A stretch of DNA of 64,000 nucleotides from Elusimicrobiota bacterium (GTDB lineage: Bacteria; Elusimicrobiota; Elusimicrobia; JACQPE01), in NCBI GenBank assembly GCA_016180815.1, contig JACPAN010000017.1, positions 1-64,000 on the forward strand, in the 5' to 3' direction. Of this stretch, positions 7,545-15,152 are shown piece by piece. Position 1 is the first letter of the stretch, and every line of letters starts with the position of its first letter. The position numbers were made by a program, and so were the translations under genes. The notes below the pieces were generated by a model. That model ran no database searches, was not told where the DNA came from, and was given only the letters and a program-made list of their open reading frames with translations.

Positions 7545-8564
7545 ATGCCCCTAAAAACAGCCCCCCGGCAAACAACCCCTTCCAACCGCCGCCCCGATTT
7601 CGCCGTCGCCCAACGCCCCCGGCGCTTGCGGCGCACCCCGGCCCTGCGCGCCATGGTCCAGGAAACACGGCTGGCCAAGGATCAACTCATGGCCCCGCTT
7701 TTCGTCAGAGAAGGGCCGGAATCAAAAACCGTGGGCCAATTGCCCAATCACCCGCAACGCTGCTTGAGCGATCTCCTGCGCCATCTTGAAACCTTCGTTA
7801 AAAAAGGCGGCCGCTCCGTCATCCTCTTCGGCATCCCTGACAACAAAAATCCCGAAGCGACCGGAGCCTGGCACGAAAAAGGGATTATTCAAAACGCGGT
7901 TCGGGCGATTAAAAAATCGTTCGGCGACGAACTGGTCGTGGCCGCTGATCTGTGCTTTTGCGAATACACGGATCATGGGCACTGCGGAGTGTTGACAGGC
8001 GAACGCGTGGACAACGACGCCACGCTTGAGCTCATCGCAAAAACAGCCGCGAGCTTGGCCCAAGCAGGAGCTGATATCGTGGCGCCCAGCGCCATGATGG
8101 ACGCTCAAGTGGCGACAATTCGCCAAAGCCTGGATCGAAATAATTTTAAGGAAACGATTATTCTCTCCTACGCCGCCAAATACGCTTCAACCATGTACGG
8201 CCCGTTTAGGGAATTAGCACAATCAACGCCGGGTTTCGGCGATCGAAAGTCCTATCAAATGAACCCGGCCAATGCCGAGGAAGCGCTGCGCGAAATCCGC
8301 CTGGATATCGAGCAAGGCGCGGATATGGTCATGGTCAAACCCGCTTTGCCGTACCTGGACATTATCGCCAGGGCCAAGCAAACCTTCTCCCACCCGATGG
8401 CCGCGTTCCAAGTTTCCGGCGAAGCCTGGATGCTTGAGCAATACGCTCAAAGCGGCATGGCCCGGCGCCAGGACGTGCTCATGGAATCCTTGCTGTCCAT
8501 CCGCCGCGCGGGCGCGGATTTGATCATCTCTTACTTTACCGAAGAAGTCCTAAGCCTTCTCTAG
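7545..8564 (+). CDS. hemB: Delta-aminolevulinic acid dehydratase (porphobilinogen synthase)
   Basis: The 339-residue enzyme condenses two 5-aminolevulinate molecules to porphobilinogen, an early step of tetrapyrrole synthesis. It shows the zinc-cysteine site ADLCFCEYTDHGHCG (C137, C139, C147), so this is the zinc-dependent rather than the Mg-dependent type. The two active-site lysines are K212 in SYAAKYAS and K265 in VMVKPALPY; the latter forms the Schiff base. Length is typical (320-340). It is followed by cstA and then hemL, which makes the ALA substrate, so the two heme genes flank a peptide/pyruvate transporter. Upstream is a TATAAT 11 bases before the ATG, with GAAGGA inside that interval. 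Confidence 0.96.
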   Translation: MPLKTAPRQTTPSNRRPDFAVAQRPRRLRRTPALRAMVQETRLAKDQLMAPLFVREGPESKTVGQLPNHPQRCLSDLLRHLETFVKKGGRSVILFGIPDNKNPEATGAWHEKGIIQNAVRAIKKSFGDELVVAADLCFCEYTDHGHCGVLTGERVDNDATLELIAKTAASLAQAGADIVAPSAMMDAQVATIRQSLDRNNFKETIILSYAAKYASTMYGPFRELAQSTPGFGDRKSYQMNPANAEEALREIRLDIEQGADMVMVKPALPYLDIIARAKQTFSHPMAAFQVSGEAWMLEQYAQSGMARRQDVLMESLLSIRRAGADLIISYFTEEVLSLL

Positions 8565-8594
8565 CGGACACTGTCCCGTCTCAAAAGCTAAACT
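8565..8594 (+). promoter_or_regulatory. Candidate promoter of cstA (leaderless type)
   Basis: CGGACA (8565-8570) and TAAACT (8589-8594) are 18 bases apart. The -10 ends 8 bases before the ATG at 8603, the same geometry as vapB. No ribosome-binding site is seen. Confidence 0.4.
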
Positions 8595-8602
8595 AAAACG
8601 AA

Positions 8603-10270
8603 ATGCCGCTTGTTGTCATCGGTTTGGGCGGGGCTTTGGCCTTGGCCCTCGGGTATATTTTTTACGGACGCTTTGTCGGCCGCGTGTTCGGCCTTGACCC
8701 CAAGCGCGTCACGCCTGCCGTCGCCATGAATGACGGCAATGATTACGTGCCCGCCAAACCCGTTATTCTTTTAGGCCAGCATTTTGCGGCCATCGCCGCT
8801 GTCGGCCCCATTGCCGGCCCCATTTTAGCGGCGGGCAAATACGGTTGGGCGCTCTCTTGGATTTGGGTGGTCCTGGGCGCAATTTTCATCGGCGCGGTTC
8901 ATGATTTTTCGGCCTTGATGGCTTCCGTGCGCCATCAAGCGCGCTCCATCGCGGAAGTGGTGGGCATTCACATCAACCCCTTCGCCCAGAAAATATTCTT
9001 GGTTTTTATCTGGCTCTCCCTCCTTTATGTAATCCTTGTTTTCACAGATTTGACCGCGGCTGCGTTTATCAGCCGCCCGGAATTAGGGGAGCAGAATTTC
9101 GGGCCGGGCGTGGCCACCACCTCGATTTTTTACCTGATTTTGGCCTTGGGCATGGGAGCGGTCATGCGCAAAAACAAACTCTCACTTTCTTTATTAACGA
9201 TCATCGGAGTCGGCCTTCTTCTTTTCTTCATCCGGTTGGGGCAGCATTTTCCCCTGGCCCTAGGACTAAAAACCTGGCAAATCATTATTCTTGGTTATTG
9301 TTTTGTCGTCAGCGTCATTCCCCTGTGGACGCTTCTACAACCCAGAGGGTATTTAGGCGGATTCCTGTTGTACGCAAGCTTAGCTGCGGGCATTGTCGGA
9401 TTTCTCTTCTACCGCCCTGCAATCCCGTCAGGGTGGACGCCTCCGGACACTCATTGGATCCCAACCGGAGTCACCGTATTCCCTTTTCTATTCACCACCA
9501 TCGCTTGTGGCGCGTGCTCGGGTTTTCACGGGCTGGTGTCCTCGGGCACGACCTCAAAACAAATAGCCAAAGAAACGGACGCCAAAATCGTGGGCTACGG
9601 CGGCATGCTCTTGGAGGCTTTTGTGGCGCTGGTGGCCTTGGGAGCCTTTATCACCATGTCCGCCGAGGGCAAAGCCGCGCATTTATCTCCCGATGAAATT
9701 TATGCCCGGGGCTTGGCCGCATTTATGACCGTCGGCGGCATTCCCTATGCCTTCGGCGTTTCCTTCGGCAAGCTCGCCTTTGCCACGTTCATCTATGACA
9801 CCCTGGATGTCTCAACACGCCTGGGCCGCTACATTTTCCAGGAATTAACCGGGCTGGCCGGACCGTCAGGCAAATACTTGGGCACGGGCGTCACCATGGC
9901 CCTGCCGCTGATTATTCTATTAGCCGCCAAACCAGGGGCTCCCCCGGCCTGGAAAGCCTATTGGCCGTTGTTCGGCGCATCCAATCAACTCTTGGCGTGC
10001 CTGACCTTGGCCGCGGTCACGGTTTGGCTAAAAAAAGAAAAGCGCCAATGGTTGGTGACCGCAATCCCCTGCGCGTTCATGGCCGTGGTCACTCTGGCCG
10101 CGCTCGCCGGCATCAATATCAACTGGATCAAAGGCGGGTTGACATTCTCTTTGGTCAACGCAGCCGGCGCTCTGCTCTTTCTTCTGGCCATTGTTTTTTT
10201 GTATCAAGCGGGGAAGGCATTTTTAACGACAACTGCCCATGATAAGGCCAAAATCAGAGCGACTGTTTAA
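8603..10270 (+). CDS. cstA: CstA family carbon-starvation / pyruvate-peptide transporter
   Basis: A 555-residue, strongly hydrophobic protein with well over ten membrane segments. The conserved CstA blocks are present: the N-terminal glycine-rich GGALALALGYIFYGRF, the HFAAIAAVGPIAGPILA region and the SGFHGLVSSGTTSKQIAKE loop. CstA proteins of the inner membrane import pyruvate or peptides under carbon limitation. The length is that of the shorter class (E. coli CstA is about 700). The last 32 bases overlap the start of hemL, so the two are probably expressed together. Confidence 0.9.
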   Translation: MPLVVIGLGGALALALGYIFYGRFVGRVFGLDPKRVTPAVAMNDGNDYVPAKPVILLGQHFAAIAAVGPIAGPILAAGKYGWALSWIWVVLGAIFIGAVHDFSALMASVRHQARSIAEVVGIHINPFAQKIFLVFIWLSLLYVILVFTDLTAAAFISRPELGEQNFGPGVATTSIFYLILALGMGAVMRKNKLSLSLLTIIGVGLLLFFIRLGQHFPLALGLKTWQIIILGYCFVVSVIPLWTLLQPRGYLGGFLLYASLAAGIVGFLFYRPAIPSGWTPPDTHWIPTGVTVFPFLFTTIACGACSGFHGLVSSGTTSKQIAKETDAKIVGYGGMLLEAFVALVALGAFITMSAEGKAAHLSPDEIYARGLAAFMTVGGIPYAFGVSFGKLAFATFIYDTLDVSTRLGRYIFQELTGLAGPSGKYLGTGVTMALPLIILLAAKPGAPPAWKAYWPLFGASNQLLACLTLAAVTVWLKKEKRQWLVTAIPCAFMAVVTLAALAGININWIKGGLTFSLVNAAGALLFLLAIVFLYQAGKAFLTTTAHDKAKIRATV

Positions 10271-11408
10271 TCGCGCCAAAAAAATCTTGGTCGGCGGGGT
10301 CAATTCCCCGGTGCGCTCCTTTAAAAGCGTCGGCGGCCACCCTCTTTTTATCCGCAAAGCCAAAGGGCCTTATTGCTGGGATGCGGACGGGAAGCGCTAC
10401 ATTGATTTAGTTCAGTCCTGGGGCGCTCTGATCCTGGGCCACGGACATCCTCAGGTTTTGGCGGCCGCTCGCCAAGCCATGAACAAGGGCGCCAGTTACG
10501 GCGCCTGCCATGAAAACGAAATCCTTCTGGCGGAAACCCTCCGCCGGGCCTTCCCAAAAACCATCGAACGCGTGCGCTTAATGAGCTCAGGAACCGAAGC
10601 CGCCATGACCGCGCTGCGCATCGCACGCGGCGCGACCGGGCGGGATTTCATCGTTAAATTTTCAGGCGGCTATCACGGGCATCATGACAGCCTGTTGGTG
10701 GCGGCCGGCTCCGGCGCCTTGACCTTGGGGCAACCGTCTTCGCTGGGCGTGCCGGCAGCCTGGGCAAAAACAACCATCGTTGTGCCCTACAACGATTTGA
10801 CGGCCGTTGAGGAAACGTTTAAAAAAACCGGGGATAAAATTGCGGCGGTGATCGTCGAACCCGCGGCCGCGAATATGGGCCTGGTTTTGCCCAAAGCCGG
10901 ATTTTTGGAAGGACTGCGTTCCCTCACCCGCCGTTACGGCAGCCTCCTGATCGCGGATGAAGTCATCACCGGTTTTCGCCTGAAATGGGGCGGCTTGGCG
11001 GATGCCATGGAAGCCGATCTGGTTTGCCTGGGCAAAATTATCGGCGGCGGTTTCCCCATCGCGGCCGTGGGCGGCGCCGCGCGCTTCATGGATATTTTGG
11101 CGCCTTTGGGCGGCGTTTATCATGCGGGCACGCTCTCCGGCAATCCCGTGGCCGTGGCCGGAGGCTTGGCCGCGTTAAATGTCTTGAAACGCGTCAACCC
11201 TTACCCCAAACTCGAGGCCCGAAGCAAAAAATTTGCGGTCTCGCTCACGCACACGGCCACGCGCTTGGGGCTTCCTTTTCAAGTCATTCAACGGGGAAGT
11301 TTATGGACGGTATTTTTCACGGAAACGCCCATTTACGACAACGCATCGGCCCAAAAAACGGACACCAAGCTGTTCGCCCGCTTTTTCCAGGAGCAATCAA
11401 TGCCGTGA
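10239..11408 (+). CDS. hemL: Glutamate-1-semialdehyde 2,1-aminomutase, C-terminally short
   Basis: A class-III PLP aminotransferase-fold enzyme converting glutamate-1-semialdehyde to 5-aminolevulinate. It has the family start RAKKILVGGVNSPVR, SSGTEA (116-121), DEVITGFR (D240) and the PLP lysine K266 in CLGKIIGGGFP. It stops at residue 389 after FARFFQEQSMP, whereas family members run to about 425-430. The missing end normally carries the small-domain segment with a GVYLAPS-type motif. The other two frames after 11408 do not restore that motif, and the next gene begins 31 bases on. The truncation therefore looks real in this assembly. It overlaps cstA by 32 bases and has no clear ribosome-binding site. 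Confidence 0.88.
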   Translation: MIRPKSERLFNRAKKILVGGVNSPVRSFKSVGGHPLFIRKAKGPYCWDADGKRYIDLVQSWGALILGHGHPQVLAAARQAMNKGASYGACHENEILLAETLRRAFPKTIERVRLMSSGTEAAMTALRIARGATGRDFIVKFSGGYHGHHDSLLVAAGSGALTLGQPSSLGVPAAWAKTTIVVPYNDLTAVEETFKKTGDKIAAVIVEPAAANMGLVLPKAGFLEGLRSLTRRYGSLLIADEVITGFRLKWGGLADAMEADLVCLGKIIGGGFPIAAVGGAARFMDILAPLGGVYHAGTLSGNPVAVAGGLAALNVLKRVNPYPKLEARSKKFAVSLTHTATRLGLPFQVIQRGSLWTVFFTETPIYDNASAQKTDTKLFARFFQEQSMP

Positions 11409-13600: not shown

Positions 13601-13912
13601 CTACTGCGCTACGTTGACCTTGAGCTTGATGTCTTCCAGCACCGCGGCCACGGCTTCGCATTTTTCCCGGGGCCCTTGGTAGACGACGGCCGAGCCGGTG
13701 TTATGCACTTGCCAGGCAATAGTTTCAGCCTGATGACGGGTGCAGCGGATGGCCTTCAATAATTGCACGATCACATCCGCGAAGGTATGGCAATCGCAAT
13801 TAAAAAGAATGGTTTTCCAGCCGAAAAAAACATCATCACTTGGCCGGCTCTTTTTTTCTTTAACGGGGTTTACCGTCGGCATCGGCTTAGGGACGCTTAA
13901 GCGCGATTTCAA
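13601..13912 (-). CDS. clpS: ClpS-like ATP-dependent Clp protease adaptor
   Basis: The 103-residue protein matches ClpS, the N-degron adaptor that hands substrates to ClpA/ClpC. It has a disordered N-terminal tail of about 28 residues, then GWKTILFNCDCHTFADV, corresponding to the LxNDDxTPMxFV block, and the helix IAWQVHNTGSAVVY, where the His matches the pocket His of ClpS. The first Asp of NDD is Cys here (NCD). That Asp normally contacts the substrate's free amino end, so specificity may differ. No clpA is adjacent. The gene begins within the 3' end of the upstream P-type-ATPase-like gene (26-base overlap), implying co-translation. A start at ATG 13882 is the alternative. Confidence 0.82.
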   Translation of the reverse strand: MKSRLSVPKPMPTVNPVKEKKSRPSDDVFFGWKTILFNCDCHTFADVIVQLLKAIRCTRHQAETIAWQVHNTGSAVVYQGPREKCEAVAAVLEDIKLKVNVAQ

Positions 13913-15152
13913 TGCGGCCGGAAGACGGCGAGCCTCTCCAGGACCGGGGTAAAGACGGGAAGACCGGGTGCTCGATCATTCCTCTGGCCGCGTCCTTGGG
14001 CGCGGGCAATTCCTGGGCTTTGTCTTTGGACACGAATAGGAACGCCTCCATATAAAACGGGCCTTTCCATGGGCGCGATGGAATGATCAAATCCGCTCGG
14101 GACAGGCGAAACGCCAGAGGAAATTTAGGATTCAGCCAGCGTTTGATGATGACCGGAACACCCCATTGATCCTTGGCGATCAAAAAACAAACGGAGTTGG
14201 GCTGATTAGCCACGGCGCTCAAACCGTCGTCGCCGAGCACGACGTTTCCCTGAAGAAATCGGGGGCTGTTAATGCGCTGGCAGCCGGCAAAAAGCAAAGA
14301 CGCAGCGCCCAAGGCCAAGGCTAAAAGCGCGGCGCCTAAATAGCGCAGAGCCCAGCGCCGGGCGATCCAGGCTCTAGCCAGAAGGCTAAGGGCCACGCGC
14401 GGCTCCAGCATCACAACGCGCGTGAATCGAGCGCTCCATTCTTTAATCTGCGCCTCTTTTTCTTCCGGGCCGCAATCAAAGCGCCGCTCTTGGGCGCCGA
14501 TGAGCCCGGCGGTTTGAACGACCATTTCTTCGGACGCGCCGGAACAGACGGCCAAGATGTTGACGCCTTGGTCCCGAAGAAGCTGGGCGGCTTCAACGGC
14601 ATCATCAAACGGTTGTTCTTCGAATAAAAGCAAGCCGCGCACTTGCCCTTCCCACCCGGCATACACAACGCGGCGGCCGAGCACTTCCTGCCGGGCCGCT
14701 TCGCGCAGCAACGTGGGCGGGCACTCCACCGAGCTCATATGCATCAACCGGGCGCTGCCCGCGATCACGGCGCGACCGTTCACCACCGCGCCCAAGCCCA
14801 AACCCGGAAATTCCCGAAGATGTTCCGCGGGCCACGGCTCCCATCGATTGGCCCGGCCCACTTTCAATACAGCCCTGGTGATGGGATTATCCGCGGACGG
14901 ATGGCCGCGCTCGAGGCTGTAGATGGTTTTTAAAAAATCGATTTGATCAACGGAAGATTCGGGCGGCAGCAAACAGCCCACCAAGGGCGTTGTCCTGCGT
15001 ATGACCACGCCTCTTCTGGAAAAAATCAAAAAGCGCGGCCAAGAAAAACAATGGCGCAATGGAACGCCTTTCTGCAGCGCCCAGAAAATCATCATGCCCA
15101 GCGGCGCCAGCGCCATGGCCGCCATCAGCAAGAAAAGAAAAAGAATTTGCAT
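13887..15152 (-). CDS. Pseudo-P1B-ATPase core fused to a CcmI/CycH-like periplasmic domain
   Basis: A 421-residue membrane protein. Residues 1-27 form one membrane helix. About 40-255 align by eye with the cytoplasmic N and P domains of copper-type P1B-ATPases: GVVIRRTTPLVG (48-59) at the DKTGT position, ERGHPSADNPITRAV (81-95) at the SEHP motif, FPGLGLGAVVNGRAVIAG (115-132), and VCSGAS (202-207) at the TGD motif. The phosphorylated Asp is Arg52, the TGD Asp is Ala206, the GDGxND motif is absent, and the membrane helix lacks CPC. A second helix (about 270-291) leads to a C-terminal domain (about 300-421) with KRWLNPKFPLAFRLSRADL, resembling the CcmI/CycH C-terminal fold. It is probably a non-catalytic copper- or cytochrome-maturation factor. 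It overlaps clpS. Confidence 0.65.
   Translation of the reverse strand: MQILFLFLLMAAMALAPLGMMIFWALQKGVPLRHCFSWPRFLIFSRRGVVIRRTTPLVGCLLPPESSVDQIDFLKTIYSLERGHPSADNPITRAVLKVGRANRWEPWPAEHLREFPGLGLGAVVNGRAVIAGSARLMHMSSVECPPTLLREAARQEVLGRRVVYAGWEGQVRGLLLFEEQPFDDAVEAAQLLRDQGVNILAVCSGASEEMVVQTAGLIGAQERRFDCGPEEKEAQIKEWSARFTRVVMLEPRVALSLLARAWIARRWALRYLGAALLALALGAASLLFAGCQRINSPRFLQGNVVLGDDGLSAVANQPNSVCFLIAKDQWGVPVIIKRWLNPKFPLAFRLSRADLIIPSRPWKGPFYMEAFLFVSKDKAQELPAPKDAARGMIEHPVFPSLPRSWRGSPSSGRIEIALKRP

What the first reader, a model, noticed from the sequence alone, without database searches (positions are those of the whole stretch)
13887..15152. Catalytically dead P1B-ATPase core fused to a CcmI/CycH-like periplasmic domain
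The cytoplasmic loop keeps the P1B-ATPase order of motifs: an HP motif (H84-P85), a GxG nucleotide region and a TGD-like turn. However, the phosphorylated Asp is Arg52 (RRTTP for DKTGT), the TGD Asp is Ala206, GDGxND is lost and CPC is missing. It keeps only the helices flanking that loop. After the second helix it continues into a domain with PVIIKRWLNPKFPLAFRLS, which by eye matches the C-terminal domain of cytochrome c maturation proteins CcmI/CycH. A non-transporting sensor or chaperone linking copper and cytochrome c assembly would be new. Stated as inference.
Basis: partly seen in the sequence, partly recalled or inferred. Interest (0 to 1): 0.85.

Follow-up and report, generated by a model that had tools for sequence, protein, structure and literature searches.

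The report
Dead copper-pump head fused to lipoprotein
Groundwater Elusimicrobia bacteria that have no copper pump of the P-type left still keep the folded but chemically dead "engine head" of such a pump, welded in the membrane to an outward-facing Ig-like domain, and cousins of this head survive as free small proteins, three of the four encoded directly after an oxidase-assembly gene.

Summary
The 421-aa gene is real. Residues 38-252 are a P1B-ATPase P/N headpiece (hhalign to CopA 99.7%; AlphaFold pLDDT 93; Foldseek CopA 2b8e, TM 0.72). The C-terminal half belongs to a class-wide Ig_CycH (PF23892) protein family. Syntenic full-length orthologues in two other genera argue against decay or assembly error. 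The link to cytochrome c assembly fails: standalone Ig proteins occur in genomes without cytochrome machinery, this genome uses System II (ResB/CcsA), and no ccm or oxidase gene is recognisable in the window. New: all four family genomes lack any P-type ATPase; the dead head is sister (100/98) to free-standing N-domain proteins; all seven genomes with this lineage carry DUF420/CtaM, and in three the N-domain gene directly follows it. The one family member without a DUF420 hit lacks the head. Best reading: a non-catalytic membrane adaptor, with a weak indirect link to haem-copper oxidase assembly. Function untested.

The parts
13887..15152 (-). Fusion protein, 421 aa: TM1 + degenerate P1B-ATPase P/N headpiece + TM2/lipobox-like segment + Ig_CycH domain
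15072..15149 (-). First transmembrane helix (residues 2-27), possibly a remnant of the pump helix before the P-domain; no CPC
   Evidence: origin from a pump helix is inference
15009..15023 (-). Residues 44-48 F-S-R-R-G, aligned with F-DKTG; Asp position is Ser45
14613..14990 (-). N-domain-like region (residues 55-180) with the lineage-specific GWEG (Trp167)
14883..14888 (-). N89-P90, at the position of the HP motif of P1B-ATPases
14397..14612 (-). Second half of a P-domain (residues 181-252): TGD to SGA, motif III Lys232 kept, GDGxND deleted
14280..14360 (-). Residues 265-291: second TM helix ending in LLFAGC, homologous to the N-terminal signal/lipobox of standalone Ig proteins
13893..14258 (-). 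Ig_CycH-like beta domain (residues 299-420), predicted outside the membrane

Best explanation
A membrane-anchored, non-catalytic adaptor made by fusing two older parts: (a) a P1B-ATPase cytoplasmic headpiece that kept its fold but lost its phosphotransfer motifs, and (b) a complete Ig_CycH protein with its signal/lipobox segment, which became the second transmembrane helix. Shown by sequence and prediction: the architecture, loss of the catalytic residues, conservation in three genera, absence of any P-type ATPase in these genomes. Inferred: head in the cytoplasm, Ig domain outside; the head serves as a protein-docking or regulatory surface rather than an enzyme, while the Ig domain binds an envelope partner. 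The most likely cellular context for the head is haem-copper oxidase assembly, because most of its free-standing relatives follow DUF420/CtaM genes and the lineage was found only in DUF420-bearing genomes of the class. Cytochrome c maturation is probably not the context.
For: P1B homology over 38-252; AlphaFold pLDDT 93.1 and Foldseek to CopA P/N domains 2b8e/3a1c, target TM 0.67-0.74; motif loss shared by all three orthologues; selection: synonymous sites saturated (pS 0.70-0.84) while pN is 0.40-0.42 in the N-domain; synteny with the LIV ABC operon, peptidase-like gene, hemL and cstA in G001 and G003; Ig family by standalone homologues over the Pfam cut-off; no PF00122 hit in any of the four family genomes against 217 of 235 class genomes with one; sister group to free N-domains 100/98, with an invariant Trp; all 7 genomes of the lineage are among the 48 of 235 with DUF420 over the cut-off (naive P 1e-5); G002 lacks the head, a DUF420 hit and an A-type COX1.
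Against: No experiment. The fusion gene is not beside oxidase genes in any genome. DUF420 co-occurrence is not phylogenetically independent (four families; three of the seven genomes are f1), and G002 is 81% complete. The P-half evolves faster than the rest (25-38% identity), so part of the head may be vestigial. Topology is from hydrophobicity and charge only. AlphaFold was run on an alignment that included CopA rows.
Confidence: 0.55

Rival explanations
1. Internal-signal polyprotein: Cys291 is lipidated and signal peptidase II cuts before it, so the gene makes two products, an Ig lipoprotein and a membrane-held dead pump head that is a carrier or by-product.
For: LLFAGC, LVFGGC, FLFAGC and LAFAGC end the second hydrophobic helix in all four family members, at the place where standalone relatives in several families have an N-terminal lipobox; positively charged stretch just before the helix; lspA- and lgt-like genes are present in the genome (L144, by sequence reading).
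Against: Phe at -3 is an unusual lipobox letter; several standalone relatives lack the Cys and must be anchored otherwise; the model prefers one long helix 255-295.
Confidence: 0.25
2. The head is a fading remnant: a linker left from gene fusion, tolerated and being lost, while only the Ig domain matters.
For: G002 keeps both helices and the Ig domain but lacks the head; Ig identity (51-53%) exceeds N-domain (41-49%) and P-half (25-38%) identity.
Against: Stop-free over about 215 codons in three genera at saturated synonymous divergence, with pN well below pS; confident compact fold; free-standing relatives are also maintained.
Confidence: 0.2
3. One reading: a sensor or chaperone that links copper to cytochrome c maturation.
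For: Copper-ATPase ancestry of the head and Ig_CycH relationship of the other half.
Against: No CPC or metal-binding domain; no TPR part of CcmI; the Ig family exists in genomes with no PF01578 and no COX1 hit, including G051; the own genome has ResB/CcsA (System II), where CcmI is not used; no ccm genes in the window by reading.
Confidence: 0.06
4. Assembly or annotation artefact joining two genes.
For: A fusion seen only in one family of metagenome-assembled genomes.
Against: Same architecture and synteny in three separately assembled genera; no conserved internal start codon between the halves.
Confidence: 0.02

Closest known systems
P1B-type ATPases (CopA/ZntA), cytoplasmic P and N domains
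   Same: Fold, order of segments, GxG of the N-domain, motif III Lys
   Different: No phosphorylated Asp (Ser/Gly), no HP, TGD to SGA, GDGxND deleted, no CPC, no actuator domain, one instead of about eight pump helices, C-terminal Ig domain
CcmI/CycH C-terminal Ig domain (PF23892) of cytochrome c maturation System I
   Same: Domain family, by standalone relatives over the Pfam cut-off
   Different: No TPR region, System II genome, relatives in genomes without cytochrome genes, dead pump head in front. CcmI also has two helices around a cytoplasmic segment (PMC3884852), but there the segment is short
Standalone Ig_CycH proteins of Elusimicrobia (~135-170 aa)
   Same: Signal/lipobox segment plus Ig domain is the C-terminal part of the fusion
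   Different: No ATPase head
Free-standing P1B N-domain proteins of Elusimicrobia (found here)
   Same: Sister clade, shared Trp in GWEG/GWDG, Gly-Ser/Thr where most CopA have Gly-Asn
   Different: No membrane helix, no P-half, His-Pro still present

Membership tests
P1B-type ATPase (as a functional transporter) | DKTGT phosphorylation motif | tested here: not met
   F-S-R-R-G at the aligned place; G/S for the Asp in orthologues
P1B-type ATPase (as a functional transporter) | HP motif of the N-domain | tested here: not met
   N-P, S-V, D-P in the three orthologues
P1B-type ATPase (as a functional transporter) | TGD and GDGxND | tested here: not met
   SGA; GDGxND deleted
P1B-type ATPase (as a functional transporter) | CPC-type metal site, actuator domain (PF00122), about eight helices | tested here: not met
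   No PF00122 hit in the whole genome; two hydrophobic segments
P1B-type ATPase superfamily (by descent) | Sequence and fold of the P/N headpiece | tested here: met
Ig_CycH domain family (PF23892) | Profile match over the gathering score | tested here: inconclusive
   The window protein is below the cut-off (13.6 of 27 bits); homologous standalone proteins are above it; 16 of 22 aligned members match at E <= 0.01
CcmI/CycH (System I heme-ligation subunit) | TPR region and System I genes in the genome | tested here: not met
   No TPR match; PF01578 hits are a ResB-linked CcsA and a HemA-linked protein; CcmH was not searched for
Bacterial lipoprotein | Lipobox Cys after a hydrophobic segment | tested here: inconclusive
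   Cys291 and F-A/G-G-C conserved, but internal and with Phe at -3; processing not testable here

The most novel reading that the evidence does not exclude
The head of a copper pump has been detached and reused as a separate, non-pumping subunit that works with DUF420/CtaM in copper loading of haem-copper oxidases; family f1, which has no P-type pump, carries the most derived form, tethered across the membrane to an envelope Ig domain.
Probability: 0.15. Interest if true: 0.8.

Novelty: new variant of a known kind. Interest (0 to 1): 0.52.

Why it matters
P-type ATPases are textbook enzymes defined by one aspartate. A conserved, folded headpiece without that aspartate, in genomes with no pump left, and free N-domains placed after DUF420/CtaM (proposed as a copper exporter in B. 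subtilis, PMC13344008), would show that the head has a use apart from pumping and would give a testable partner for the unexplained CtaM step.

Tried and rejected
Single-protein scan of genome contigs found nothing; with alignment A1 it returned only the same three relatives, now named as groundwater Elusimicrobia. A second reading, GVVIRRTTPL as the pump's GVLxRxAEPLE segment with DKTGT deleted, was dropped: the supposed bridge in G004 is an out-of-frame overlap with DUF420 and hhalign aligns SRRG with DKTG. Internal translation start for the Ig half: none conserved. Ig domain against the PDB: no sequence relative and only a weak Foldseek hit, a secretin pilot protein, E 0.007. Literature for pseudo P-type ATPases or standalone N-domains: nothing in the held library. 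A general DUF420-N-domain linkage: only 2 of 30 DUF420 loci checked have it, plus G008, so it is confined to two families.

Full report
WHAT IS THERE. The ORF at 13887-15152 (-) encodes 421 aa. Pfam finds HAD hydrolase (5e-7), NCBIfam TIGR01525 heavy-metal ATPase (8.7e-13, far below its full-length cut-off), PDB the CopB ATP-binding domain (2e-4). A profile of the three full-length orthologues aligns without long gaps to 30 CopA-type proteins of the class over residues 38-252 (hhalign probability 99.7%). AlphaFold gives pLDDT 93.1 (the alignment included CopA rows), and Foldseek ranks CopA/CopB ATP-binding domains and pumps first (E about 1e-14 to 1e-16; 2b8e TM 0.72 on the target).

RESIDUES. 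By the multiple alignment: DKTG = S45-R46-R47-G48; HP = N89-P90; TGD = S204-G205-A206; the motif III lysine is kept as K232; GDGxND is missing as a six-residue deletion just before E250-P251-R252. The two orthologues have the same losses (G or S for the Asp; S-V or D-P for HP).

SECOND HALF. Direct Pfam support for Ig_CycH is weak (E 0.056), but the same domain is a standalone ~135-170 aa protein in many families of the class, and several of these pass Pfam's cut-off (16 of 22 at E <= 0.01). Many carry a lipobox; in the fusion that segment is the second helix and its Cys (C291) is invariant in the four family members. So the fusion joins a pump headpiece to a whole signal-bearing Ig protein. 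A separate model of the Ig part (pLDDT 88) has no close solved relative.

REAL AND CONSTRAINED. G003 and G001 (48% and 42% identity) share the fusion and the neighbourhood: divergent from a LIV-type ABC operon, next to a peptidase-like protein, hemL and cstA. They correspond to the records Elusimicrobia bacterium NC_groundwater_1153 and _1299. Synonymous sites are saturated while pN is 0.40-0.42 in the N-domain, 0.43-0.53 in the P-half, 0.33-0.37 in the Ig domain. G002 has both helices and the Ig domain but not the head.

NO PUMP LEFT. PF00122 is absent from all four genomes of the family, present in 217 of 235 genomes of the class and in 14 of 14 controls. The other lacking genomes are scattered (five of family f3, several incomplete ones). 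So the dead head has outlived the pumps in f1.

RELATIVES OF THE HEAD. Free-standing N-domain proteins of ~125-140 aa, with His-Pro, occur in G004, G008, G011 and G036. With the three fused heads they form a clade against 30 CopA sequences (100/98; long-branch attraction is not excluded, but an invariant Trp supports the grouping). A profile separates these seven (156-189 bits; they are its training set) from all CopAs (<= 79 bits) in 235 genomes. In G004, G008 and G036 the gene directly follows DUF420/CtaM, in G004 after ctaB; in G011 it lies beside electron-transfer-flavoprotein genes. All seven genomes have DUF420 over the cut-off (48 of 235 do; naive P 1e-5; really only four families). In G000 the DUF420 gene ends a Sco-CoxBAC-...-CtaB cluster with no N-domain gene after it. 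G002, without the head, has no DUF420 hit and its COX1 hit looks like a nitric oxide reductase; it is 81% complete.

WHY NOT CYTOCHROME C. Standalone Ig proteins are present in G051, G053 and G047, which have no PF01578 and no COX1 hit. G051's contig length equals, from memory, that of Elusimicrobium minutum, a fermenter. G000 matures cytochrome c by ResB/CcsA. CcmI acts in System I with CcmF/H and binds apocytochrome c (PMC3884852). No ccm or oxidase gene is recognisable among the window's ORFs (by reading).

HOW IT PROBABLY WORKS (inference). Positive charges flank both helices on the loop side, so the head should be cytoplasmic and the Ig domain outside. Without Asp, HP, TGD and GDGxND it should be unable to run the P-type cycle; a docking or regulatory role is the simplest alternative. 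CtaM is required for aa3-type oxidases (PMC4958251, PMC9145763) and has been proposed as a copper exporter in B. subtilis (PMC13344008); the neighbourhood of the free N-domains makes this the best context to test. Rivals: an SPase II-split polyprotein, or a fading linker.

LIMITS. No experiment; MAG incompleteness; few family members (four); small, related sample for the co-occurrence; literature search limited to an open-access library.

Noticed in passing
L064:1510-1887 (-), L141:8510-8932 (-), L142:1-400 (-), L066:5724-6125 (-): Free-standing P1B-ATPase N-domain proteins with the His-Pro motif intact; in G004, G008 and G036 directly after a DUF420/CtaM gene, in G011 in an electron-transfer-flavoprotein cluster.
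   Followed up: yes
G000, G001, G002, G003 (whole genomes): No P-type ATPase of any kind (PF00122) in family f1; several f3 genomes also lack it yet keep DUF420.
   Followed up: partly
L014, L017, L026, L044, L054, L058, L059, L079: Standalone Ig_CycH proteins of family f10 share a conserved C-terminal tail, usually GNFFRTAAR, of unknown meaning.
   Followed up: no
L146:7704-8141 (+) in G000; also short hits in G001 and G004: A 146-aa protein matching only positions 305-400 of the COX1 profile (48.6 bits): a small COX1-like protein seen in several genomes.
   Followed up: no
window 7545-11408: hemB, cstA and hemL in a row upstream of the fusion gene; a similar row near the fusion in G001 (hemB there by sequence reading).
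   Followed up: partly
L062:2288-3010 (+): G002 orthologue with both helices and Ig domain but without the ATPase head.
   Followed up: yes
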